Source of the DNA: Bryoerythrophyllum caledonicum
Taxonomy: Eukaryota; Streptophyta; Bryopsida; Pottiales; Pottiaceae
NCBI GenBank assembly: GCA_963971425.1
Contig: OZ020524.1
Span: 14,201,845 to 14,265,844 of the forward strand
Length of the DNA stretch: 64,000 nt
Reading direction: 5' to 3'
Shown: positions 25,311 to 63,611 of the stretch, one piece after another
How the letters are laid out: every line of letters starts with the position of its first letter
Numbering within the stretch: position 1 is the stretch's first letter
Notes under the pieces: model-generated
Databases searched by the model: none
The model's input: only the letters and a program-made list of their open reading frames with translations
What the model was told of the DNA's origin: nothing
Made by a program: the position numbers and the translations under genes

Positions 25311-28095
25311 ATTGCAATTTGGTTGTTTAGAACATTAATTGCGGTAGAAATATACAGATGGCAATTTTGGAACGTTTTGGAAAAAGAGTCTTGACCTCTT
25401 TGACGTTGCACCATACATGTACCACTCCAGTTCCTTTCACTTTTCCTCATTTTCACCCCATTTACTTTCCCCTCTAAATCTATCTCAATAACTATTTGCA
25501 ATGCCGCATTAACTACCAACAATCCTTAACTCCAACACTCCCACTTTATAAGTAGTTACCATGTCGCCATCCCATCGCCATAGCTAACATTTGATGTCGC
25601 TCTCTCACAAGTGCTTTTGTCAACACATCGGCCACTATGTCTACCGTTGGGAAATACTTCAAGCTAATCTTACCGCTCTCCAACTTCTCGCAAATTAAAT
25701 GATGTTCCACATCAATGTGCTTTGACCATGAATGGTGTGTAGGGTTCTTTGCAAGAGTTATGTACCCTTGGTTGTCACACATGATAATCGTTGCTCTTTT
25801 TTGAACAAACCCCACAATCCCCACAAATCCCACATCCGCTAAGAGCTTGCAAAGTCAAATTGCCTCCTTTGTACTTTGACTACTTCCATATACTCCGCCT
25901 CCGTAGTCGACACGGCAATCGTGGGTTGCCTCTTGCAATTCCAAGAGATGACACCATCTCCAACAAAGAACACATACCATGTTGTTAAACGACGCTTGTT
26001 CACATCTCCAGCCCAATCCACATTGCGTAGCCCCTCAAAGCAATGTTCTTACTACCATGCCACAATTTGTGGTCCTTGATACTTTGCAAGTACCACATGA
26101 TGCGCTTCACCACACTCCAATGAGATGAAGCAGCCCTAGACATGAATTGATTTACTATGCTCACCGCAAAAGCAAAATCAACCCATGTGGCCACCATGGC
26201 ATACATCAATGATCCGACTCCACTCTTGTATGGCACGCCTTCTATGTCACCTTGAATGGCATGAAACTCTTCTTCCGAGATCTTCAACAACTTGACATTC
26301 GTATCAAGTGATGTATCGATGGGCGTGCACTCTTCCATGTTGAAGCACTTGAGCACCTCTTCAATATACTTCTTTTGGCTCATGGTGATGGTGTGTGCAT
26401 GGTGGTCCCTCACAAATTCCACACCAAGACAATACTTCAACTCACCAAGATCGGTCAATGTGTCAAACTTCGCGTCGAGCTTGCCTTAGAGCCACATCAA
26501 TTTGGCCAAAAGGCTAGCCAAGATGATCAAATCATCTACATAAATGAGTACTATCAACAAGTACTCACCCGTTTGTTTGATGAACAATTAGTGATCAGCT
26601 TGAATCACTTCTTGTAAAGCCTTTTTTAATGAACAATAAGTCGATTCGTTGGTATCAAGCCCTTGGTGATTGCTTGAATTCGTACAACAACTTTTTGAGC
26701 TTGCACACAAGATGCTCAAAGTCCCTCTTCTCAAAACCTTGTAGTTAGCTCATGTAGATGTCCTCTTCCAAATCGCCACTCAAAAATGCGGTCTTCACAT
26801 CCACTTGATAGATCTCCAAATCCAACGCAGTTCCCATGCAACAATGCACCGAGTGGTGTTGAATTTTGCAACAAAAGCAAAGGTCTTAAGGTAGTCTGCT
26901 CCTTCAACTTGAAGGTATCCATTTGTCACCAACCGTGTCTTGTGGCGCACAACTTGACCCGAAGCATCCTTTTTTGTGCAAAACACTCATTTGCATCCGA
27001 CGCTCTTGTGACCTTTTGAAAGGGGAGACAACTCCCAAGTTTCATTTACCATGAGCGAGTCATACTCCTCTTGCATGGCCGCCTCCTATTTTCTCGCATC
27101 CTCGGATCGCATGGCTTCACACACATTCAATGGATCCTCGAGAGTGTCCCGCTCCACTTCATGTTGCGGCAAGATGTGGTTCATCCACCACTCTCCAGGC
27201 GGCCGCCGCTCCCTTCTTAGATATTGTGGCTCTTGAGTTCTCCCACTATCTTCATCACCACTTGATGTTGATATAGGTGTCGTTGAAGGCCCCAAGGGTG
27301 CACCTTCTTTGTCACCATCCACTATCTTCTCTTTTTTCAAATCGCTTTCACCCGTGGTACTTGGTTTGGAAGATTTGTCTACCAAATTCAACGAAGGCGT
27401 CTCCAAACCATAATCAACACTTGAGCTATCTTTAACAAACACCACATCACGACTTTAAATGATCTTCTTCGTCTCAACACATGAGGCGATATGCCTTGGT
27501 GGCCTCGCAATAGCCAAGAAACAAACACTTCGTGCCTTTGCATCGAGTTTACCCCTCTTTGCATCCGGCACCATTGCGTATGCAATACATCCAAACACAC
27601 GCATGCGTGCAACGCATGGCTTGCGGTCGCTCCAAGCCTCTTGTGGTGTGATGGTTACAAATACTCTTGTCGGGCACTGATTGCGAATGTATACTGCATT
27701 GGTCATCGCTTCCGCCCAAAAAACAAGTTTGAGCCGTTGAGCATGGATCATGTTTCTTGCCATTTCCACAATGGTGTCGCTAGCTCGCTCGGCCACTCCG
27801 TTTTGCTCGAGGGTGTACGGTGTTGATAGTTGCCTCTTGATGCCATGATGCTTCAAGTAGCCTCGAAATGCCTTGGAAATGAATTCCACACCATTGTCAA
27901 ACCGAAACACTTTGATCTTGTGCTCGGATTGTTTTTTTGCAAGCGCCTCGAATTCATTGAATTTCTCAAGGCACTCTTTTTTTGTCTTCAAACTGTACAA
28001 CCACACCTTCCTTGAAAAGTCATCACTGATAGTCACAAAGTACCATGCACCGCCAATGGACATGATTCTCATGAGGCCACACACAAATGAATGTA

Positions 28096-29812
28096 CAGTA
28101 CCTTGCAAATGAGTTACGTTTATTTCTTGAACTGTCAGAACACGTCTTTTATAGTGGTGTCACTTCGGAATGAGATCTTGGCAAGAATTTCAAACACTTG
28201 GCTATGTAACTTAGTGGATACATGAAAATCATAGTTGTGACTCACCAACTGCTAAATTTAGGATGTACCAAAATGTCAACAGGTACAAATTCGGGATTTT
28301 TAAGAGACATCTTGAACTTGCTGTCACTACAACTGGAATGCTTGCAACAATGTTAACTGCGAACACGCCATCACAATAAAGATTTTTCTAACTTGCAACT
28401 ACAAAATGGATCCTTGGGTTCTAAGAATCATAGTGGATTTGAGTGCTAGAGTGTTTGTAGCAAAACTGAGTGTTGGCGGAGGTCGAAATTGTTGGGTATA
28501 TGGTCTGTGCAAAGTTGTGCATGTTGTTGTCTTTGCATGCTTGTTGTGTATTGGTTCCATTTGAGAGAGATGAAGATAAGGACTTTGAGTGAGGAAGAAA
28601 GAGGGGTCATCGTGGGAATGCGGAGTGCTGGAATGTCAACTTATAGTATTACGAAGGAACTGGAAATGAATCAGTCAACTGTCTTCACTATCTGGAAGAA
28701 CTACTGTGAGGGTGGTACAGTGGTAGCACGTAAGCCCTGTGGAAGGGCTCAAAAGCTTTCAATTCGTGATAAGAGGGACCTTGCGCGCATTCTCACCCAA
28801 AATTGTCACCTATCTCGTGAAGATATCATTGAGCAGATGAGGATCAAGGTCTGCAAGCGCACGTTGTCAATGTATATCAACAAACTGGGTTTTGGCAATC
28901 AAATTGCAGTGAGGAAGCCATATTTGAGCGAGAAATACAAAGCAGATAGGCTAGCATTTACAAAGGCACACAAGAGATGGACTCTATCAGATTGGCGCAA
29001 CATTATGTGGAGAGACGAGTCTTTTTTTGAAATTGGAAAGAGGTCCCGACAAGTCAAGGTTTGGCGTCGAGCGTATGTACTATGAACGCTACTCAATGGA
29101 TTGCATAGCCCCCACATTCAAGTCGGGCCGCACTTCCGTCATGATTTGGGGTGCCTTTAGTGGCTTTGATAAGTGCCCTATTATTGTTATGCCACTTCAT
29201 AAACGCACAAGTGAAGATTTTGTGAATATTGTATATGAAGGTCGCTTAAGTGGCTTTTATTTCATGCATGATGAGCGTGAGAATCTTATCCTCATGGAAG
29301 ACGGCGTTCCTGTGCATCGTAGTAAATATGCTGAAAGTTGGAGAGTAGCGCATCACATTAAGAAGCTGAAGTGGCTGGCAAACTCGCCAGACTTGAGTTC
29401 TATAGAAAACCTATGGATGATTATAAAGGACTGTGTACAAAATGGGCTGATACCAAAAAACCAAGAAGAAATGATTGAATCCAATGAACAGACATGGGAA
29501 GGCATCTCTAAGGAAATAATTGAGATCCTCATTGCTAGCATGCCTAATCGTATGAAGGCTATAATTGATGCTAAAGGTGGTAGCATAAGATGGTAGGTAG
29601 TATATTCTAAGATATTTTATTGTTGTATGATTTTGCAAGTTTGTTGTAAAATTTTCTTCTTGCAGTAAAATCCACTTCATTACCTTTTCAATGCAATTTT
29701 CCATACTTGATTTGGCCCAAAATTGAATCTGTAATGCCAATTCGAAATTACAACTCCATGTATGTTTACTACCCTGTGGATACAATAAACGTAACTCATT
29801 TGCAAGGTGCTG
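28096..29812 (+). mobile_element. Tc1-like DNA transposon B (DD34E), inserted in copia
   Basis: A 1,717-bp element bounded by TA at 28,094-28,095 and 29,813-29,814. Its terminal inverted repeats of about 29 bases start CAGTACCTTGCAAATGAG at the left and CAGCACCTTGCAAATGAG (complement) at the right. It lies in opposite orientation inside the copia integrase region, with only the TA duplicated, as expected of Tc1/mariner insertion. It encodes one transposase (next entry). One frame change makes this copy inactive, but the ends and frame are otherwise well kept, so it is younger than its copia host. Confidence 0.92.
28570..29596 (+). pseudogene. Tc1-like transposase B, one frameshift
   Basis: Starts MKIRTLSEEERGVIVGMRSAG, with a first HTH (MSTYSITKELEMNQSTVFTIW) and a second HTH ending in the linker GRAQKLSIRDKRDL. 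The catalytic domain has Asp in IMWRDESFF, Asp in ILMEDGVPVH and Glu in NSPDLSSIENLW. Thirty-four residues separate the last two, the DD34E spacing. The reading frame changes near 29,070, just after VKVWRR, where relatives continue directly with a Tyr- and Cys-containing stretch. That single frameshift is the only break seen. Length about 342 residues, normal for Tc1 transposases. Confidence 0.85.
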
Positions 29813-30254: not shown

Positions 30255-31883
30255 CAGTGTCTAGCAAAACTGAGTCAAGTTCTAGTAATTCAAAATTCAA
30301 TTATCAATGTAGGAAAACTGGCAATAGATTTGCACAAATCATAAATTGTACAAGATAGCAATTTTAGTCGGCTACAATTTGATGCAAAAGAAAGTTCTTT
30401 TTACATTCATATGTACAAGAAAATCACATTCGAAGGAAACTGTGTCTCTTGACTCAGTCTTACATCATCAACCAAAAAACAACTTAATATTTTGTCCAGT
30501 TGCCTTTGGCAGCTAAAACAGCTTGGATTCGTCGTGGCATGCTTTTGTACAATCTCCTACACTCCTCTGGTTTTATAGAAGCCCAATACTCCTCAATACG
30601 TTCTGACAACTCTAAAATTCCTTTTAGAGCACTTTCATTCTGGTTAAGACGACGTTTTAGCCTTATCAAAAGATGTTCAATTGAATTTAGGTCAGGAGAT
30701 TGTGCAGGCCACTTAAGAACATCAAAGTTTTGTGATTTTAGCCATTGGCGAACACTTTTTGCTGTATGTTTGGGATCATTGTCATGCTGAAATATCAAAT
30801 TCGAAGGATCAAGATCATATGCCATCACCGTGTACATTAAATCTCTTTGCAAAATTGCTTTGTACTGATGTTGATCCATTCTTCCTTCAATTCTACAAAA
30901 CATGCCTGGGCCTTGAAATGTCATACAACCCCACAACATGACAGAACCACCACCAAACTTTACACTTTGTTTCACTTCTTTTAAATCAGAAGACCGTTCA
31001 TTGCGAATCCAACACCAACTGCGACCATCGGAGCAAAATCGATTTACCTTTGTCTCATCAGAGAAGATGATGTGCTCCCAATCATGAATGGTCCAATGAC
31101 CAATGTTCATGGCGCCTAGCAAATTCAAGTCAATCCTTGATGTGTCTCTGGTTCAATTTCGGTTTCTTCTGCTTCACTTTTGATCTCAGTCCTCCTGCAT
31201 GTAAGACCCTTCTCACCGTATCAACACTTACAATAACTTGGCATTCCTCACGTACATGTTGGGTAGCATATGTCGCAGTTTCAAATCCTCCTGATGTGAC
31301 AGCTCTAATGCCTGCACTCTTTTGAGCATCTGTTAATACTTGTGGTCTACCACCACTACTAGTAGGAATATCAGACAATCTCTTCCTTCTAAGTCTTGCA
31401 ACATGACTTTGAGACACCTACAACTCACTTGCTACATCCCTTGTGGATCTATAAGCTTGCAACTTCACCAAAATAGAGTTATCAAGGTCTGTACGAGCGC
31501 TTGCAGAAAGCTCCTTCAAGTACACCATGTTGAGTAATAAAAGTATACTAACAATGTGCATGGAGTGTTGCAACATTGTAGTTTAATATGCCCAAGCCAA
31601 TTTGAGCTCATACATCCTCAATGCATTTGTGGCATGCAAAACACATGTCTTGGCCCTTGAGTCCTCAATGGCATGCAAAATTGAGTCAAGAGACACAATT
31701 TCCTTCGAATGTGATTTTCTTGTACATATGAATGTAAGAAGAACTTTCTTTTGCATCAAATTGTAGCCCACCGAAATTGCTATCTTGTACAATTTATGAT
31801 TTGTACAAATCTATTGCCACTTTTCCTACATTGATAATTGAATTTCGAATTACCAGAACTTGACTCAGTTTTGCAAGACACTG
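30255..31883 (-). mobile_element. Tc1-like DNA transposon C with 202-bp terminal inverted repeats
   Basis: A 1,629-bp element flanked by TA (30,253-30,254 and 31,884-31,885). Its inverted repeats, 30,255-30,456 and 31,682-31,883, start CAGTGTCTNGCAAAACTGAG and differ at only about a dozen sites. Long inverted repeats are typical of Tc1 elements with internal direct repeats: a GACTCA/GAGTCAAG word sits at both ends of each arm. It encodes a single DD34E transposase on the minus strand and has landed in the kinase pseudogene. Confidence 0.93.
30484..31528 (-). pseudogene. Tc1-like transposase C, lightly broken
   Basis: Starts MVYLKELSASARTDL at 31,528. The HTH (VSQSHVARLRRKRL, SSGGRPQVLTDAQ) is followed by the DDE core: IIFSDETKVNRF, LIFQHDNDPKHTAK and WPAQSPDLNSIEHLL, with exactly 34 residues between second Asp and Glu. 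Breaks seen are a TAG within the first HTH near 31,420, a TGA near 31,130 that looks like a decayed CGA, and a 7-base tandem duplication (CATTGGT CATTGG) near 31,100 that shifts frame. It ends AVLAAKGNWTKY. About 345 residues in the intact relatives. Inactive but fairly recent. Confidence 0.85.
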
Positions 31884-52371: not shown

Positions 52372-53059
52372 TGTAACAAATTATAATTGGAATTACAAGT
52401 ATAAAAAGAGCTTTCACTCAATACTTAGGTAAATTCCCCCACATTCTAACAAAGAAGGTAAGCAATGTACATGATAATGGAGAAAGAAAAGAACTCTACA
52501 TTTGTTTTTTTGGTGATAGATGATAGAATTACAATTTCAACATAAGTGAATTTTTTTATTTTTCTGATGAATGTAAATCAGTTATAAAATTTTCAAACTC
52601 TATTCTTGTGTCTGGTCGAGTTGTCACAAGATGTGGTGTCGAGGGCCTCTCCATATCGTAATGTTTAGAGTAGAATAGTTTGTTACTACTCTACGAGTTT
52701 AGGGACGTACGGCGGCGCACCACATTCATCCGCGGATGATTTTCATCCACTTAGGGTTGTGTGTGTACATATAACGTCGCATACGTCTTTGACTTGACGT
52801 CTTCGTCAAATCAAGCTTTGTGAGTGAGTTATAGAGTGTTTAGTGATTACTTTTGCTTATAAGTGATTGGTTATCATTTGTAAAGGCTCCGCATTCTCTT
52901 ATTCTACTTGCACTCCTTGATTTTCCTTTTGTGGAGCGCGAGACACTTAACAACTCTTGTGATTCACTAGTTATTCACTTGACAAAGACCCTCTCACGTT
53001 CCTCTCTTTAGTTCTAGAATTTGAGCTTGGGTGAGTTTGGAAAATTTTTGGATGCTTAA

Positions 53060-53867
53060 CCCCTAAAGAACCGATGTCCCCTCGGGGGACGTTTTGAGTT
53101 TGGGTAAGGTACCACATTCTCAATTCTAGGCATTATTTTCTGAGATTTTTTATTGAATGGCCAACTTTTTATTCGCTTTGCGTAGACACAAATTTTGTAG
53201 AATTCCGACTTACGGTTCAAGAGTTACAATTTATTTTTATTTACATATTCAAATAGTGCAGTAGTTTAGTGTGACATATCACAAATACTGTCACCAAACT
53301 TTAATAACTTCTAAATTCAATAGAAATTCGAGTTTTTGTCCATTTAGAAGACTGAAAATGTCTTCTTGGAAAAGAAATTGAGATCTTTGCATCTACCGTA
53401 CGGATTTGTGAATTTCAAATATTTGAAAAGGATATGACATATGCAAAATATAAAGTGTATTTTTGATTCTCGGCACATAGGTGCATTGTAGGATTTTTTA
53501 GGACATCTTCTACACCTCTTCTACTTCTAAAATTTGGTGCACATGTGCCTAACATGATCCTTTTCAAGTTAAGACAATAAAATCACGGCCTGTAGTGCAA
53601 AAAGTTGCCATAGAAGGTGGTCGAAGTTTGTTGAAGGTGTATAGTATGACCTGAAAAAGAGATTATGTCGCACTTCAAAGATAAATATCTTTCAATCCGT
53701 GCAATCAAACTTACCAAAAATTACACCACACACTCTCATACAAGTCTAGTATAAGATCCTACGGTTAAATTTTCAAAAAAATGATTTTGTATCATTTTGT
53801 GTTGAATGCGCTGAAAATGGCAGGTTTGGAGTGTTTTTGAGGAAAAACTGCCTTGGTCCTTTAGGGA
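53060..53867 (-). mobile_element. piggyBac-type MITE, copy 2, inside the gypsy leader
   Basis: 808 bases with ends CCCCTAAAGAACC and GGTCCTTTAGGGA, flanked by TTAA (53,056-53,059; 53,868-53,871). It is homologous to copy 1 in inverted orientation (shared CCGTAGGATCT and GCACGGATTGAAAGA). It is inserted between the 5' LTR and gag, hence younger than the retroelement. Confidence 0.82.
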
Positions 53868-56800
53868 TTAAATTGAAGTTGTAGAGCGCGTTACAATGAA
53901 GCCAACGCAACAAACGACGCCCAAATCGAACAATTTTTGAGCAAGATGTGAGTGGCGAAAGAATTAGAAGAAGAAGAATAGCTGCTAGACCTCATCTGCG
54001 GTTTCTCATTCTATTTGTGAATTCATCCGCCGTGGGCAGTTTTCATCCATTGTAGATGAATCTATAATTTGGGTAGAATTCATTAATTGTGAGTTAATAT
54101 CTCCCAAACTATTCATTTATTCTTTAATTCTGACTTTGGATTTGAGCTCTCCATAGGGGTTTCTACGAATGAAGAAGGGAAGATTTTAGTGGATTTTTTT
54201 TTCCAAAACCACATTTTTGGAGGTCATTAAAAAAGAAGATTAGTGTCTAAACTTTGGAGGTATGTAACTAGGGTAGTTTAATTCGGTTTTGAGTGAAATT
54301 TGTGCCTATATTTAGGGCATTTTACCGTTAATCCAATTTTGATATAGGATTGATGTTGAGCGCGTTTGTCACCCAATGTGTGATTTTCATTAAAGGGACT
54401 TGTGTTTGTTAACACCGCGACTACATTAGCTCAGTACCCCCTTAGTTTTAGACTTTGGGAAGGACATCTTTGGGTGTTTCCCTTGTGCTATTGCAGGTTT
54501 TGCGGCTAGTAACCATCCACTGCAAGTGTGTGCTAGTGGCTCTAGTCATTTTCATTTACCACTTTTATGTTGTTGGGGGAGAGCATCCGGTTTTGATTTT
54601 TGGATTCTTATGCGGTACCTCTCCTGTGTTGTGGGCTTGTTGCCGGTGTTTTCCGGTTGCCCCAATTTCTTGTTGTCCCCAGATTGTAATAGGATACCGT
54701 AGAGGTGAAGTCAGATGGATGGCCGGGAATACCTTTCTGTATGGAGATTGTGTTTGGACCTCCGTTAGTCGGAGGTGGTGACTGGTTAACCACAAAGTTT
54801 GGTGGATTTGTAAGTGCAGGTTGTTCGTTCCTATCCTTCCTTTAGATACTACGTGTAGATAAATCCGGGGTCGTTATTGTTTATGGTGAGTATCCGGAGT
54901 TGATATTATTGCTCCCCCTCGCCAAACCACTCAAAGAGTTCTTTCACCACAAACTTTGGACCAGGGTCGGATACTAATGAGGCTTTTGAGCCCATTTCGG
55001 CATTGGATATCGACCGTAGGCTTCGCATCTGGGGCATGGGCACATTTGACGGCTTGGAGGACGATCTCTGTCATGTCTTACTAGACAGGTTCTTGAGACG
55101 GGTTGGGGCATCCCCCTACCCCATTGGCAGCTTCGATTCCATATCTGAATGAAAGAAAAGCGCCAGAGGACACGGTCGTTTAATAATTGTTATGCGTTCA
55201 AGCTCTTGCCCGACCATTTGGAGTTGGAGGCCCTTTAGTCATATGAAAGGTGGACTACGCAGCACGATGCACTATTGCGCCCTGTTGAGGAGTACTGGCG
55301 CCAACGTGTGGAGTTGGTGACTACGTTATAGGAGAGTGCAATTATCAAACTCTCGACTTTCACCGAGGAGCTCAAGGTGGAAGAGGGTTTTCTTAGAGAG
55401 GACTCCAGGGCGTTGCTGTTGTGGCCGAACGGTCTGGCATGGGGCCCATGTCACGTTTGGCAGTGGCAACATGTGCGGCATTGATGGCGGTTGACAATCC
55501 GCCAGCCTTCGATCCTTTAGCGCAATTAAGACACATCTGGAGGTCGAGCTCGAGGGATTTAGACGTAATCAGATGCCACACATCCAGAATTTCCACCGGG
55601 AAAAGGAGGATACCCCTCGTACTATGTATACCCGATTGGCACGATTATTAGGGGAGGCCCATGATGTGTTCACGAAGCACCAGCTGGTGAAGATTTTCAT
55701 CTCTAAGCTAGATAAGCGGATGGTGGAGTTGATTAGTCCGCATCTTCTTTTTTGGTATTATGAGAACGCTACTTTTTTGGTACAATGAGAACCTGAAAAG
55801 GTTGTGCATTGTTGGACTTATGGGGAAGCGGGTCACATCAAGGGGGATGTGAATTGCTCTAAGAAGAAGGGAGCTGGCACTAGTAGGGCAACCAAGCCTG
55901 TAGAGAAAGGCAATCAAGCCTGTAGAGAAAGGCAATCAAGCCTGTAGAGAAGGTTGGAGGCAAGAAAAAGAAGACGGTGACATGTTCCCACTGTGGCAAG
56001 TCCGACCATAGTGATGAGGAATGTTTCGCTATTCACCCAGAAAAGCGCCCATGGTCTTGAGTTGCTGGATTAGATGTCGTGAAGACACTTTAGGCCAAAC
56101 TGGGAGAGCTAAAGAAGCAGATGAACGCGATGGTCATTTAGAGACAAGTAGCAGACACACGGTCTCCGGTAAGGAGTTAGAGCTCATCTTCAGCCCTAGA
56201 CCTCTACTTGTATGGCGCTTCGGAAGGTGATGGCAATAGTGGCCACTTGTGCTCAGACTACCGCATAGACGGTGGCACCTTCCCTCTATTTGTCGCGTAG
56301 TAATGGCCGTCCACGCCACACGGGTTTGCCAGACTACATTGGTCAGTCCTTGTTACTTTTTTGTTCTGTATCGCGGATGCGGTTAATTATATTGCCGCTC
56401 CTACTCCGATCTCGTTACAACGATTTCTTCTAGTCGTGGAGGTGACGCACACATCTTGGCGTATAAGGTGTTGCAGTTGCTGGTGTTTGTTGGTGTGGAC
56501 TTACTGACACCGGATTTTTAACCATCCAATGTATTCCACTTCGCGCGTAGTATGTTGGAAGGCAAGGTGCCCATGCCATGGTTGGAGGTGTCGCAAGTAG
56601 TGATGGCTCCACCCACCGAAGAGGATTTGGCGGCAATGTAGGCTAAACTGGCGGCGGAGGCTATTTCCGCGTTTGAGGCCAATACCACGTCCACACCTAT
56701 GGACCAATCCTCTAGAGATCAGTCCTTGATCTCTAGAGTGGCATATTTGTCTGACTTTGCAGCCCGGTCGGCACAGGCGTGACGTAGTGTGCGTCCAAGG

Positions 56801-57539
56801 GTGGTACGTTTGGTAAATGACGATGGAGTCATGGTGGTTGGCTGTACAAACGGCAATCCCACTTGAGCTACCCTCCATTGTGTTAGGTTGGACTCCGGAG
56901 CTCAGTCATTGATGATTGACAAGCAGCTAGCCCAGGATTTTGATCTAGGTGCTTCAAACCTTGAGCCTTACCCATTTACGATTGTTGTATCGGTAGGGGA
57001 CACAAAGAAGGCCATGGGCTACACCCGACATTCGTTGCAGTTGATGTTCGGCGTGGAATCTGGTCGATTATTCTCCCATGTATCTCTATAGTGTGTTGTG
57101 GCTGGTACTACCAACTACGACATCTTGGTGGGTCAGCAGACTCTTTATCCACTCCATTTTTGGGTGGACAACTAGATGGAGGTGGCCTAGATTAGGCTTG
57201 GATGGTTTGTCGGCGATGGCAGAAAGAAGCTCATTCCGGTTGTCTTCGCAACTAGTGCGGTGACTTCCACGGCAAATGCAATGTTTGGATTCAAGCCTTG
57301 GCATCCAATTTGCCATGTGGTTCTACACTTTTGGACGAGACATATGTTTTTATGTCGGGGGGTGAGGAATCACGTGAGCATAGATTAGTGGAGATCCTTT
57401 TACTTCTTGAAGGACCCAGTTGGAGCTCACACGTCGCAGTCGTGAGATTGCGGACACTCTTGATGCTCCATAATTCTCAGTGGATTCTTCCACTCCGTTA
57501 GTAGCTTGTAGTATTCAGTGGCGACCATTGGATGAGGGT

Positions 57540-58500
57540 AATACCCTCGTGGAGCTATTTGTCGATATCGGTATGGGGCTCACGGCTACGTAAGTGGCCG
57601 GTCTGAAGGTGTGGCAATACATCCACGTGGATAGTGGCTTTGCAGCTAACCGTGCTGCTCATCATCACATTGAGCGTCTTTTGGCGTTGTATCCGGAGCA
57701 ATTACCACCTTCTGCAATTCAAGGGTGTTTGGGCAAGTTGCCACGTGATGTGACGTTGATCAGTGAGGAATATGATTTGCGCCAGTTAGGTCACGTGGAC
57801 TTGATGATTTCCGGATGGCCTTGCCAAGGCTATTCACGGGCAGGGAGTGGACATGGCCTAGATGATCCACTGATGGGTCTCTTTGAGGATTTGTTTAAGC
57901 TCATTCAGTGGGGGACTACCCACCAATTGATGCCACCGGGGTACATTTTTGAGAATGTACCCCCATTGGGAGATACACAGACAAATGTGCGTGAGGATGG
58001 GGCATACATCCAACACCTTTTTGGTCCCCCCACGCATATAGATGCCGCAGCGTTGGGCTCTTATGCCCATCAGCCATGTTGGATTTGGACCAACATGGCA
58101 TCATCGGCGACGCTCACATCCGCACTTGCTTAAGTGCAACAGCCTGTACATCGTGAGGTCTATATCATCTTGGACGACCACGGAGGTTCCCAAGGATGAT
58201 GAGCCACCGTTGGTAGTGGTGAACCACGTTGGTTTCACTTTAGGGGCATTTTCCAAGTTGATGTGCAACGCGGAATTTTTTGCCTTTAGAACACGCGGTC
58301 GAGGCATGGTTTGGGATTCTACTTTCCAAACTTACGAGGAGCCTTTTGCTGATGAGAGGGAGGGAGCGATAGACTTTTTGACAGGCAACACCGCCGCATT
58401 GGATCTTTCTAAGGGCCATCGTCGATATTTGTTGGGTCAAGCCATTGACCTCAACACTCTTGTTTGAGCTTGTGGCCTCTGTTTTGCTGTTCAGCGTTGT
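57540..58500 (+). pseudogene. Cytosine-5 DNA methyltransferase domain within the gypsy fossil
   Basis: Part of the retroelement polyprotein region, not a host gene. Methyltransferase landmarks are visible in order: motif I-like VELFVDIGMG (S-adenosylmethionine site), motif IV DLMISGWPCQGYSRAG with the catalytic PCQ Cys, motif VI GYIFENVPPLGD with the ENV Glu, and a late LGQAIDL block that resembles motif X. Such enzymes methylate cytosine in DNA. The domain sits between protease and reverse transcriptase. It belongs to a broken fossil; its former activity is inferred. Confidence 0.85.
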
Positions 58501-61500
58501 TCGCGTGACCATCCATACATGTTTAAAGCAAACTCTGATAGTCAAGGGACAAAGGTATCACACTTCACAGAGATTGAGGAAGCCGAGTTGTTTTTTTGTT
58601 CAAAGAGGCACGCAACTGAGGAGCTTTGTGCTTAGCGTGTCTTTCTGGCTTTCGCCGAGGACATTGGTCGAGAGGATGCTTGGGAAATCTTTTCCTGGTT
58701 TTATCATGACGACACGGTATTTTCTATGGATCCCATTAGTGAGGAGTCAGGCGGCATGAACGCCCTATCTGCTACTATGTAACAATTACCAGTTGTGCCG
58801 ATACGTAATTAGTCTCTTAAGATGGAGAAAGAGACGACGAAGTTTGATGATTGGCCTTTGGATTTTGGACCACATTTTATCGGTGCCGAGGCACGGAGGG
58901 TACGAGCGTTTATACGTTTGTATCGTAATTGTTTTGCCTTTAGTCTCCATGATTTGGAGGGCTATAGAGACAAGCCTATTGACATTCATTTGGAGGACGA
59001 CCACCCAATCTTCCGACGACCGTACAAGCTTAGTCTTTCAAAGAAAAGTGGAGTTCAAACTCGTTGTTAGGAATTATTGGCTGCAAGTTTGATTGAGCTT
59101 TCTAATGGCAAGTACGCTTGTGCGACGCTTATGCCATCAAAGAAAGATAACTTTGGCAACTAGACGTAAAAGCAGATATGTTGGAATCATAGGCCAGTCA
59201 ATTGGAAGACCAAGTCATACTAATATTCCATGCCCACGTCAGAGGAGTTATTTCATACGTTGAACCATGCTAGAGTATTTAGTACTCTAGATTTAGGGTC
59301 TGGTTATCACCAGTTATCATTAATGGAGGATGCCCAGGCGAAGACTACATTCTGGATAGTTGATCAAGATGAAAGAGATCAACCCTATCATTAGAAGTTT
59401 CTTGTATTTGGCCTCAAGAACGCACCTGCTAAGTTTCAGAGGGTGAATGATCAAATGTTGAACGGTTTATCGTTTGCCCGATGCTACATTGATGATGTTA
59501 TCATTTTTAGTAGTAGCCCATAGGAGCATGTGAGACATCTTCAGGCCATGTTCAAGAGGTTACGGCAGTGGGGATTGTGTTTGCACCATAGCAAGTGCAA
59601 GTTCTCCTACGACTAGTTGCCATATTTGAGACATGTGGTTGTTCCGAGAGATCTTGGCGTGCAGCAGGCCCCGGTGGAGGCGTTGCAGAAGATTCTTGCC
59701 CCGATTGACATGTCACAGCTTCAAGCATTTCTTGGTTTGACAAATTACTATCGCCGGTTTGTCAAGAACTTTAGCTTGATTGCTAGGCTGAAGCTATTTT
59801 CACGGGAAATGATCAACCATGGACTTGAAGACTAGAGCAGTAGCAGGCGTTTTCTTCTTTGAAGCTGAAGCTCGGTTCAACGCCTAGGTTGTGTCGTCCA
59901 GATGCTACACGACCCTTTCAATTGCACACAGGCTGGAATGTTGTGGGATTGGAAGCAGTGTTGACTTAGAAGGATAATGAGGGACGGGAGTGCGTTGTGG
60001 CGTTTGCTTCTAAGAGTAACAACAACAAGGAGTCAAAGTATCCTATGAGGGGGAGGCTTTGGCCGCGGTTTGGGCCATAGCCCATTTTAGGCCTATTTTT
60101 ATGGGCAATTTTTTACGTTGATGACCGACCATCAGCCTTTGAAGTGGCTCATGGAATCTAAGAAGCTTACTGGCAAGCTCGCCAGGTGGGCTTTGTTGCT
60201 TCAGAAGTATAACTTTGAGGTTGTAGATTGGGTTGGCACCACGAACTTGGATGCGGATGGTCTATCTCGCAATCTAAGCCCTTCAAAGGAGGATTTGACT
60301 AGTGTCAGGCGGGATGAAGACTGTGATAGAGAGTTAATCCCGGAATGGATTGCAGCGGCTTACCTCACGTTGATGTATGGCTCCGCATCGACGTTGTCTA
60401 ATTTTGGCAACGGATGAGGAACCGGATAGGGCCCAAGTTGTAAGCGATGTGTGGAAAGACGGTGTAGTCTTGCACAAGCTAGAACATGGGACACTACCCC
60501 CAGCTTTTTCTGCTATGGAGCATAATCATATTGGACACCAAAAAAGGTAGAGCCAACTAATTCCGATCAATAGAGTATGCATGGCATGGTGCATGAAGTG
60601 ACCCAAAACCGATGTCTCAAAATCTGAAAACTCTAGTCATTATCGGCATTGGCTCATGAAGTGTGCAATTTTGGGTTGCTCCCCATCGATTAAGCTCTCA
60701 TTGGTGGCATTGCCTCAAAAGTCAAACAAGGCCGATCGGCATATGATACCCTCCATGAGTTGGTTATCCATAGCATGTCTTTTCTCTTTACTCACTCTCA
60801 CTTGTTGGCATTGGGCAAAGGAGGGCACTAAATCTCATCTACTCTGTAGTTTGAATATGGGCTCCGGTGGTTTTTAGGCTTCTAAATTCTATATAAATTG
60901 CAAATCTTTGAGATTAAATTTGAATTTTTATTGTTGAGTTTCATTCCTAATTCTGCACCTTTCTATATAAATGTTTTTGACATACAATGTCATTTGAGAC
61001 CCTAGTTGGCTAAAGTGATCAAAATTGGGTGCGTCTACCTTAGCAAGGTTCCGTTGGGAGAACGGCCTCCTATTTCGGGTGTGGCCGGATGAAACTAGGC
61101 ACATAGTTCTCAAGCTGGATCAAAGGGCTTTGTTGGTACGGCAAGTACACAAAGACCTAGGACATTTTGGTATGCAACGGACTCATTTGATGTTTCGTAG
61201 CCGATATTGGTAGACCGGCATGTATCAACATGTCGCCTCGTATGTTTCTCAGTGTGAAGTGTATGATCGAGTCAGATCCAACATCAACACCTAGTCACCG
61301 CAGTTGTAGCCTTTGCCCATTATGGGACTAGGATACCGGTGGTCTTTGGACTTTGTTGGTCTACTTGTCATGATTCCATGCAGAGCCAAGTATATATGTC
61401 TTGGTGATGGTGGAGCATTTCAGCAAGTGGATTGAGCTCGTGGCTCTTCCGCAAAACTCTTCAGAGTTGGCGGCCATGGCATTCTTTGACCGGGAGTTGG

Positions 61501-62732
61501 CTTGTTTTAGAGTCCCATCTGAGGTTTTGACTGACCGGGTGCATGAGTTCTTTGGGACTTTCGAAGCTTTGTGTACCAACGCTTTGATTGACCATCGAAT
61601 CACTTCGGGGGATCATTCGGAAGCGGACGGTTTGGCGGAGCGTGAACTTCAAATCATAAAGCAGGGCCTATGGAAATGTGGATTACTTCAAGGTGCCTAC
61701 CGTGATTGGAATCTGATTATACCATGGATCGCCATGGGTTACCGATTTAGCCGACAAGCTTCACTAGCCATTTTCAGTCCGTATTAGTTATTGTACGAAC
61801 ATGAGCCAATTTTACCGAGTTCCGTTTGGAAAAAGTTGGCTCCGGTTGTAGATTTGGACGATCGTGAGATGTGGGCCCAGTGTCTACAAGATCGAGCGAA
61901 GTTCTTCAAGCAAGCCATGGAGAATTTATTTATTGCTCAGCACCATGACACCTGAAGGTACGCTTGTATTCGTAGCGGTGCCTACCAACCCCAGCTGCTA
62001 CATTTCTCTATGGGGGATTACTTTTATCTACAACATGAGGCGCTCACGACATTGGACATTAGGACATGGCGCATCATTCTTTACGTGAAGGATGTATTGC
62101 CCACTGGCATCTTGTTGCAGGAAGGCGAGGATGGCTAGGAGTGTTGGGAGTGTACTCTAAGAATTTGACTTCTTGCCATATAACCATTAATGGCTTCGTT
62201 CATCTAGAGTTGGCCATTGTGTGAGACGGTCTTCTGTGTTTCGTGTGTGTAGAGAAGAAGGGCGCGGCTACCATGTTGCTTTGTGACCATTGCAGGCGTG
62301 GATGAGATATAGCTTGCTTGGCGCAGCCTCTTTCTACACTACCGTCCAAAAATTGGACTTGCTCTTGTAGTCGGAGGTCTTCAAGCCACGTTTCACTCGA
62401 TGAAGCGGCTTGAATTTCTCGTGGACTTGTCACTATGTAGTGCGTTGCTATCCAATTGAAGTCCCTGGTTTTGATTCAAGGATAGGCAACGTGAAGATTG
62501 ACCAAAGGATTGGCAACAAAGTTGTCTAAGGCGATTAGAGATGGGGCTCACATTGCACCCGACCTACCCTCTTTTTGTTACTTCTCCATATGCTTATTGA
62601 TTCGAGGACGGGCGACAGCTTTGACTGGATGCGTACAGTTATTGTAGCAACATTATCGTGGCGTTTAATCTTCATAGTGTTGTTTGGTTCTAGTTGGATG
62701 AATGGTCTTTTTATCCGCTAGGGGGGGCACTT

Positions 62733-63195
62733 GAGGGTGAACTACGTACCCTTGTTTTAGTGTATGTTTTTCATTTATTTGATGTTGGTTAGGACTTTCG
62801 ATCTGTTATGGTTATCAATCTTTCTTTAGACGATAGCTGTTACGGGACATTAGGTCGAGGGATCCTTTGTATTATAATGTTTAGCTTAGATTAGTTTGTT
62901 ACTATTCTACTGGCTTAGGGATGTACGACGGCGCACTACATTCATCCGTGGATGTTTTCCATCCACTTAGGATTGTGTGTGTACACATAGCGCTGCATAC
63001 GTCCTTGATTTGATATCTCTGTTAAGTCAAGCATTGTGAGTGAGTTAGAGAGTGTTTAGTGATTACCTTTGCTTGTAAGTGATTGATTATCATTTGTAAA
63101 GGCTCTGCATTCTCTTATACTACTTCCACTCGTTGATTCTCCCTCTGTGGAGTGCGAGACGCTTGACTACTCTTGTGATTCACTAATTATTCCTT
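62733..63195 (+). repeat. 3' LTR of the gypsy fossil
   Basis: Begins TGAGGGTGAACTACG after the polypurine tract and ends near TTATTCC. Its right two thirds match 52,640-52,979. Confidence 0.8.
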
Positions 63196-63300
63196 GAGGT
63201 GTACTACATATACTTGTTTTAGTGTATGTTTTTTGTTTATTTGATGTTGGTTAGGACTCACGGTCTGTTGTAGTTATCAATCTTTTTTTACACAATAGAG
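63196..63300 (+). repeat. Partial second LTR adjoining the 3' LTR
   Basis: The LTR beginning is repeated (TTGAGGTGTACTACATATAC, CTTGTTTTAGTGTATGTTTT) directly after the 3' LTR and stops after about 100 bases. A head-to-tail LTR fragment. Confidence 0.75.
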
Positions 63301-63611
63301 TAGCTCCAAATAGGAATCCAATATGCGTTGACCAAAAGCAAGGAGCTTTAGATGGTAATGGGACGGAAGTAGGTTGGATATACCTCAAATTTACAAGTGT
63401 CGATGAAGGATTTTAGTTGGTTACCAAGGATTGCCTCAAATAAAAAAACAACAGAGCACTATAGTGAGGTGTAAGACAAAAACATTATTTTAAAAAAAAA
63501 ATCCTCATTACATCCATTCAACCAACTAACAAGTGGGGCAATATTAGACAATGTTCATCCAATATTTTTGGTGAGTTTACTTTATTTTTTTCCGTATTTT
63601 TGGTGGATTCT

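What the first reader, a model, noticed from the sequence alone, without database searches (positions are those of the whole stretch)
52640..63195. Gypsy retrotransposon fossil with its own cytosine-5 DNA methyltransferase
A methyltransferase domain with recognisable motifs I, IV (WPCQG), VI (ENVPPLGD) and a motif-X-like block lies inside a Ty3/gypsy element, between protease and reverse transcriptase. Retrotransposons that captured a cytosine methyltransferase have been reported from dinoflagellates and charophyte algae (Klebsormidium). Finding one in what looks like a land plant suggests the capture is old or repeated in the green lineage. An element that methylates DNA could disguise itself, help silence itself to limit damage, or silence rivals.
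Basis: partly seen in the sequence, partly recalled or inferred. Interest (0 to 1): 0.88.

Follow-up and report, generated by a model that had tools for sequence, protein, structure and literature searches.

The report
Retrotransposon carrying a DNA methyltransferase
The window holds a decayed copy of a plant retrotransposon that carries its own DNA-methylating enzyme; younger copies in the same genome and relatives in liverworts and green algae point to an old family in which this enzyme and the reverse transcriptase were inherited together.

Summary
Window 52622-63297 is one decayed Ty3/Gypsy element with a 4-bp target duplication (GAGT) and a DNMT3-type cytosine-5 methyltransferase (MTase) between protease and RT. 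It is no one-off: the same genome has at least 40 nearly full-length relatives of the Gag-protease-MTase ORF and a second family 53% identical in the MTase. Host DRM genes are permuted; the one compared is 23-25% identical.

Beyond the finding: (1) the MTase ends the Gag-side ORF, before a stop in the tobamovirus leaky context (TAG CARYYA) in 26 of 26 own-genome copies read; (2) copies lie as A-internal-B-A-B, a cyclic permutation of an LTR cDNA, with 4-bp duplications in 10 of 12 younger copies with both ends; (3) over 54 elements, MTase and RT trees share 29 of 51 splits without strong conflict, so the capture looks single and old.

Known precedent: KnitGypsy-Dnmt3 of Klebsormidium. New here: liverwort relatives, against a printed statement that methylase transposons are absent from land plants, and points 1-3. 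Enzyme function, readthrough and integration route are inferred. Host species not named.

The parts
52618..52621 (.). 5' target-site duplication GAGT
   Evidence: read; 4-bp duplications in 10 of 12 younger copies
52622..52988 (+). repeat A1 (starts TGTCAC)
55427..56222 (+). decayed gag with zinc-knuckle region
   Evidence: tblastn to L003 ORF1
56870..57088 (+). decayed aspartic protease (LDSGAQ)
   Evidence: Pfam E 0.03; position
57546..58593 (+). DNMT3-type cytosine-5 methyltransferase domain, motifs I to X in canonical order, broken by stops and a frame change; catalytic Cys codon 57822-57824
58780..58788 (+). ORF1/ORF2 stop with its context, TAA CAA TTA here, TAG CAA TCA in the living family
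58783..59787 (+). decayed reverse transcriptase
59796..60405 (+). decayed RNaseH
61040..62150 (+). decayed integrase (zinc-binding and DDE core)
62237..62371 (+). PHD-finger remnant
   Evidence: intact in L003 ORF2, E 4e-10
62720..62727 (+). polypurine tract AGGGGGGG
   Evidence: also before B1 in younger copies
62731..62835 (+). repeat B1
62838..63196 (+). repeat A2
63197..63297 (+). repeat B2
63298..63301 (.). 3' target-site duplication GAGT

Best explanation
Shown: a decayed copy of a Ty3/Gypsy family that has inherited a DNMT3-type cytosine-5 MTase together with its reverse transcriptase since before its sampled groups split. Younger copies encode Gag-protease-MTase, then a conserved leaky-type stop, then RT-RNaseH-integrase-PHD, and lie in the chromosome as A-internal-B-A-B with TG..CA ends and 4-bp target duplications. 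Inferred: (a) a minority of ribosomes read through the stop, so the MTase is made at Gag level and enters the particle (about 0.8); (b) it methylates the element's own new DNA (cDNA, circle or fresh insert) de novo, which quiets the copy early and limits harm to the host (about 0.5); (c) reverse transcription makes an ordinary BA-internal-BA cDNA, its ends join to a two-LTR circle, and the DDE integrase opens the circle at the internal palindrome GACA-GC-TGTC, giving the permuted chromosomal form (about 0.4); (d) the PHD finger steers integrase to chromatin through the histone H3 tail (about 0.5).
For: MTase is DNMT3-type: 29 of 49 PDB hits, all ahead of the other 20. Purifying selection: pooled pN/pS 0.16 within family 1, 0.108 against L003, 0.117 between subfamilies 2a and 2b. 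Catalytic Cys kept in 31 of 32 group I and 69 of 70 group II rows, gaps in the other two. Leaky context in 26 of 26 own-genome copies read and in L003, against 12 of 5905 stops in the window. Permuted ends with the palindrome in 10 of 10 family-1 and 5 of 6 family-2 3' ends; duplications in 10 of 12. MTase-RT congruence. That retrotransposon DNMTs can methylate CG de novo was reported for other elements (PMC5890265, abstract).
Against: No activity, readthrough or circle was measured. P0034 has MTase and RT in one open frame and group II has them in one ORF, so the leaky stop is not universal. In group II, and in P0034 and P0038, motif IV is mostly ECQ or SCE instead of PCQ, so activity there is uncertain. 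A two-LTR circle has two B-A junctions, yet only one of the two permutations was seen. Two of nine family-1 copies lack a duplication. The 54 elements were found by MTase similarity, so MTase-less relatives were not sampled.
Confidence: 0.62

Rival explanations
1. The MTase acts mainly on other DNA: it silences rival transposons or DNA viruses, or shifts host methylation.
For: PMC6338049 proposes an anti-viral role for transposon methylases (passages); PMC5890265 says that such events could affect the host epigenome (abstract). Purifying selection fits this as well.
Against: In Klebsormidium the host methylome is like that of land plants despite such elements (PMC5890265 section 9). Being encoded with Gag puts the enzyme next to the element's own DNA (inference).
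Confidence: 0.25
2. The MTase was captured separately in group I (before RT) and in group II (before integrase).
For: The domain sits at two different sites in the polyprotein; group I as a whole is weakly supported in the larger MTase tree (0.394); host DNMT3 genes are missing from the trees.
Against: MTase and RT identities fall together over the pairs compared; the split of L003, family 2 and P0034 from the rest is supported in both trees (0.978 and 1.0); both groups carry a PHD finger.
Confidence: 0.25
3. The A-internal-B-A-B layout is made by a DIRS-type route, or by tandem-LTR recombination in the chromosome, not by opening a two-LTR circle.
For: The same repeat layout is described for DIRS elements and for KnitGypsy-Dnmt3 (legend). 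One family-2 copy has three tandem BA units and then B, which recombination could make.
Against: ORF2 has a DDE integrase and Pfam named no tyrosine recombinase in it; 4-bp duplications abut TGTC..GACA; the layout is uniform across two families.
Confidence: 0.4

Closest known systems
KnitGypsy-Dnmt3 of Klebsormidium nitens (PMC5890265: abstract, passages and section 9 seen)
   Same: Gypsy element with a non-rearranged DNMT3-type MTase in its polyprotein, DIRS-like repeat layout, purifying selection on the MTase.
   Different: Described as lying in the Pol ORF of a charophyte alga; here it closes the Gag-side ORF before a leaky-type stop, a PHD finger follows integrase, the genome is another streptophyte, and named relatives are liverworts. 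Sequences were not compared.
Group II elements found here (RT-RNaseH-MTase-integrase-PHD), one from the chlorophyte Monoraphidium neglectum
   Same: Related MTase (34-39% identical), RT, integrase and PHD; congruent trees.
   Different: MTase lies between RNaseH and integrase; motif IV is mostly ECQ; one ORF without the stop.
Dinoflagellate DNMT retrotransposons (PMC5890265, passages)
   Same: A retrotransposon that carries a cytosine MTase.
   Different: Reported as an independent acquisition in elements only distantly related to Gypsy.
Tobamovirus type I stop-codon readthrough, UAG CARYYA (PMC5382211, passages)
   Same: Same stop and hexamer between an upstream product and a polymerase-bearing extension.
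   Different: Here in a retrotransposon; readthrough not measured.
DIRS/PAT split-direct-repeat elements (recalled; listing only)
   Same: A1-internal-B1-A2-B2 repeat layout.
   Different: DDE integrase and 4-bp duplications instead of a tyrosine recombinase.

Membership tests
Ty3/Gypsy LTR retrotransposons | domain order RT-RNaseH-integrase with Ty3-like RT | tested here: met
   L003 ORF2 order; best PDB match Ty3 Gag-Pol, E 7e-100; same order in the window
Ty3/Gypsy LTR retrotransposons | two complete LTRs at the ends of the insert | tested here: not met
   5' end has A only, 3' end B-A-B, in the window and in 9 of 9 family-1 copies with both ends found
Ty3/Gypsy LTR retrotransposons | short target duplication made by a DDE integrase | tested here: met
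   10 of 12 younger copies and the window
DNMT3-type cytosine-5 MTases | closest to DNMT3, motifs I to X not rearranged | tested here: met
DNMT3-type cytosine-5 MTases | motif IV PCN | tested here: not met
   PCQ in 29 of 32 group I rows; PCN in human DNMT3A and 3B
DNMT3-type cytosine-5 MTases | de novo methylation activity | not testable with these tools
   no assay
KnitGypsy-Dnmt3 | sequence grouping with the Klebsormidium elements | not tested
   no Klebsormidium sequence was recognised
DIRS/PAT elements | split direct repeats A1-internal-B1-A2-B2 | tested here: met
DIRS/PAT elements | tyrosine recombinase, no target duplication | tested here: not met
   DDE integrase and no recombinase named in ORF2; 4-bp duplications
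host DRM genes | permuted order, motifs VI-X before I-V | tested here: not met
   element order is I to X; the two host DRMs are permuted
host MET or CMT genes | clusters with MET or CMT of this genome | not tested
   search not answered; no DNMT1, MET or CMT chain among 49 PDB hits at E up to 1

The most novel reading that the evidence does not exclude
A green-lineage retrotransposon group in which a DNMT3-type enzyme is made at capsid level through a tobamovirus-like leaky stop and methylates the element's own DNA, and in which the DDE integrase opens a two-LTR circle at an internal palindrome instead of using LTR ends, so that inserts are born both methylated and cyclically permuted.
Probability: 0.22. 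Interest if true: 0.9.

Novelty: new variant of a known kind. Interest (0 to 1): 0.74.

Why it matters
[quoted passage not shown] its next sentences speak of tracheophytes). Five Marchantia polymorpha proteins and one Calypogeia fissa protein of this family show that it fails for liverworts. Congruent MTase and RT trees and purifying selection mean that the elements gain something from the enzyme, and one genome with many young copies lets the question of what a parasite gains by methylating DNA be tested directly. The permuted insertion form with DDE-type duplications is a second, separately testable puzzle about integration.

Tried and rejected
Host-gene capture: rejected for DRM only (L090 compared in sequence, L091 by motif order). 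No host DNMT3 exon was recognised among the 147 matches of a DNMT3B piece, but only 150 of 423 candidates were scored, and I looked into four of the matched places. MET and CMT were not tested.

Chance truncation of the 5' LTR: rejected, because the same layout and junction recur in two families.

Chance stop between the ORFs: rejected.

Bacterial origin of L003: the record is named a cyanobacterium, but the contig is a Gypsy element whose ends overlap by 127 bases; treated as eukaryotic DNA in a metagenome bin.

Phage and prokaryotic-type MTases (and L004): distant; L001, L002 and L004 were included in the tree.

Led nowhere: structure prediction; first alignment scans; naming the host from genome size (listing, passages of one moss paper with another size); plasmid search; counting the junction palindrome genome-wide (not completed). 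One search read family 2 in a wrong frame; one search replaces it. Dropped before the ratios: 5 of 20 family-1 copies (two missed by the anchor, three with broken frames). The comparison of family 1 with family 2 there is saturated and not used. Sequences under 150 aa and P0108 were left out.
Full report
What is there. The right end of the window carries one Ty3/Gypsy element on the + strand. Pfam on its open pieces finds a C5 DNA methylase (57594-58130, E 2e-9), RT, RNaseH, integrase zinc-binding and integrase core, with a weak protease upstream. The copy is decayed: against the two ORFs of an intact relative it falls into 16 matched stretches with 39 in-frame stops. Where that relative and one young copy agree, 101 of 163 substitutions in the methyltransferase (MTase) region are C-to-T or G-to-A, and C-to-T is commoner at CpG (20 of 73) than at other C (31 of 243), as expected of DNA that was long methylated (inference). 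The borders are 52622 and 63297, flanked by GAGT on both sides. The two A repeats differ by K2P 0.203, against 0.003-0.034 in nine younger copies. I give no age in years, since no rate for this host is known.

The relative that made it readable. A scan of genome contigs found one locus, L003 (9285 bases), 83% identical over the MTase piece. Its record is named a cyanobacterial metagenome bin, but it is a Gypsy element whose contig ends overlap by 127 bases. The two main nucleotide blocks match the window at 81-82%. ORF1 (1162 aa in the contig; its 5' part lies at the other contig end) is Gag-protease-MTase, and ORF2 (1047 aa) is RT-RNaseH-integrase-PHD. Both are in one frame with a single stop between them.

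A family, not a one-off. In the own genome (437 Mb, 894 contigs) the Pfam methylase model gave 123 scored matches of 1058 candidates. L003 ORF1 gave 40 scored places of 3851 candidates, all covering nearly the whole query at 86-90% identity, 14 of 40 without a stop inside the match. A human DNMT3B piece gave 147 matches, best score 39.7 bits, 150 of 423 candidates scored; of four matched places looked into, two were decayed copies of this family and two were host DRM genes. These counts are lower bounds. A second family in the same genome has an MTase about 53% identical and the same order, MTase, stop, RT ORF (6 of 6 copies read), with a PHD-like tail.

What kind of MTase. The L003 domain hits PDB chains of DNMT3A, 3B and 3C first (29 of 49 hits, E 4e-8 to 5e-6), then HhaI- and HaeIII-like enzymes (14), then DRM-type chains (6, E 0.014-0.053; the label DRM for two of them is recalled), with no DNMT1, MET1 or CMT chain at E up to 1. 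The profile of the window piece with eight relatives agrees (29 of 45, all ahead of the rest). Motifs I to X are in canonical order, but motif IV is PCQ, not the PCN of DNMT3: a divergent DNMT3-type enzyme. Two host DRM genes were found on contig C3; in both the ENV block precedes the motif IV block, the mark of DRM. The segment compared, from one of them, is 23-25% identical to the element enzymes, which are 29-34% identical to human DNMT3A. So the MTase is not a recent copy of these DRM genes. MET and CMT could not be searched.

Selection. Pooled pN/pS is 0.16 within family 1 (15 of 20 copies usable, 105 pairs), 0.108 against L003 (15 pairs) and 0.117 between subfamilies 2a and 2b (8 pairs). 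The catalytic Cys is present in 31 of 32 group I rows and 69 of 70 group II rows; the other two have a gap there.

The leaky stop. The ORF1 stop and next six bases read TAG CAA TCA in 20 of 20 family-1 copies (18, two) and in L003, and TAG CAA CCA in 6 of 6 family-2 copies. The window has TAA CAA TTA at the same place. This is the type I readthrough context UAG CARYYA of tobamoviruses (PMC5382211, passages). Of 5905 stops in the six frames of the window, 12 are followed by CARYYA. In L003 the first Met of ORF2 is residue 117, inside RT, which speaks against re-initiation; in family 2 it lies at residue 16 to 82, so there re-initiation is less clearly excluded. The MTase thus belongs to the upstream, presumably Gag-level product. 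This is inference; readthrough was not measured, and other members (P0034, group II) have no such stop.

The permuted ends. In 10 of 10 family-1 copies the 3' end is B1-A2-B2 (one with a shortened B2); in 9 of 10 the 5' end has A without B, and in the tenth no A lay in the stretch fetched. In family 2, 5 of 6 3' ends show the layout, one of them with three BA units in a row and then B; the sixth, in a disrupted copy, shows none. B1 and A2 meet at the palindrome GACA-GC-TGTC in 15 of 16 3' ends, the same sixth one lacking it. Inserts start TGTC and end GACA with an exact 4-bp duplication in 7 of 9 family-1 copies (0 of 72 mismatched pairings agree) and in 3 of 3 family-2 copies, read from flanks printed; the window makes one more. 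A polypurine tract lies just before B1 in the window and in family 1. Ordinary reverse transcription would give BA-internal-BA; the chromosomal form is its cyclic permutation. My model is that the cDNA ends join to a two-LTR circle and the DDE integrase cuts the internal palindrome with a two-base stagger, leaving the usual recessed CA ends. Its weakness: the other possible permutation (A-B-A-internal-B) was not seen. The Klebsormidium paper says in a legend that its element has DIRS-like repeats with Gypsy domains, so the layout is probably shared.

Distribution and age of the capture. A protein search with the L003 MTase found 34 relatives: mostly unnamed metagenome proteins, one of Calypogeia fissa (a liverwort) and five of Marchantia polymorpha, at 44-49% identity. 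One Marchantia protein, P0033, runs from the MTase into the start of RT; its model has a gap at the Cys. A search with a distant relative found 67 proteins, itself included, among them one of the chlorophyte Monoraphidium neglectum. Of 70 distant proteins examined, 48 have the order RT, MTase, integrase, PHD; 21 have part of that order, and one (P0042) shows only the MTase. So the domain sits at two sites: before RT (group I, with the window) and between RNaseH and integrase (group II). Over the 54 elements with both domains, MTase and RT trees share 29 of 51 splits (label permutation: mean 0.14, maximum 2 in 200), have no conflicting pair with support 0.95 or more, and both split L003, family 2 and P0034 from the rest (0.978 and 1.0). 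In a larger MTase tree of 105 sequences, group II without P0042 is a clade (0.948), group I is weakly supported (0.394), and family 2 joins the liverwort sequences and two unnamed ones (0.982). The simplest reading is one old capture and one move inside the polyprotein. Limits: elements were found by MTase similarity, no Klebsormidium sequence was recognised, and host DNMT3 genes are missing from the trees.

The PHD finger. Its nearest solved relatives include PHF12, UHRF1, KDM5 and PHF21A. Several of these bind the unmodified H3 tail (recalled), so it may aim the integrase at such chromatin, by analogy with chromodomains in chromoviruses (recalled).

Against what is in print. PMC5890265 (abstract, passages, section 9) describes KnitGypsy-Dnmt3 and reports that retrotransposon DNMTs can methylate CG de novo. 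PMC12344493 (passages) mentions DNMT3 in retrotransposons of streptophytes and dinoflagellates, calls the elements LTR Copia and DIRS, and has no occurrence of 'liverwort' or 'bryophyte' in its main text. PMC6338049 (passages) places methylase retrotransposons in green algae and charophytes among others, so group II in a green alga is not new in kind, but says that they are absent from land plants, such as tracheophytes. In the listings of six searches no title or abstract start reports them in a land plant; only open PubMed Central papers are covered, and most listed papers were not opened. I call it a new variant of a known kind.

Not settled: enzyme activity, readthrough, the integration route, the host's name, the relation to the Klebsormidium elements, and whether the element gains by quieting itself or by acting on other DNA.

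Noticed in passing
L004 (own genome C14:16014858-16018817): A full-length 370-aa intronless C5 methylase of prokaryotic look beside an IS4/5-type transposase, inside a 22-Mb contig: gene transfer or a misassembled contaminant.
   Followed up: partly
60542-61040: A 499-bp stretch absent from L003 interrupts the fossil's ORF2; it has no other match in the window.
   Followed up: partly
55882-55951: Three copies of a 22-bp unit in the decayed gag (family D6).
   Followed up: no
L071: A family-2 copy ends in three BA units in a row and then B.
   Followed up: partly
group II proteins P0040-P0109; also P0034, P0038: Motif IV is mostly ECQ, also SCE or ECK, instead of PCQ, with Cys, ENV-type Glu and R.R otherwise kept: an unusual C5 methylase variant.
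   Followed up: partly
L003: A eukaryotic Gypsy element filed in a cyanobacterial metagenome bin; P0057 of group II is likewise labelled a Minisyncoccia bacterium.
   Followed up: partly
28955-29593 (+) and 30487-31152 (-): Two DDE_3 (IS630/Tc1-like) transposase remnants.
   Followed up: no
27458-28159 (-): Integrase with an SH3-like retroviral domain, probably a Copia remnant.
   Followed up: no
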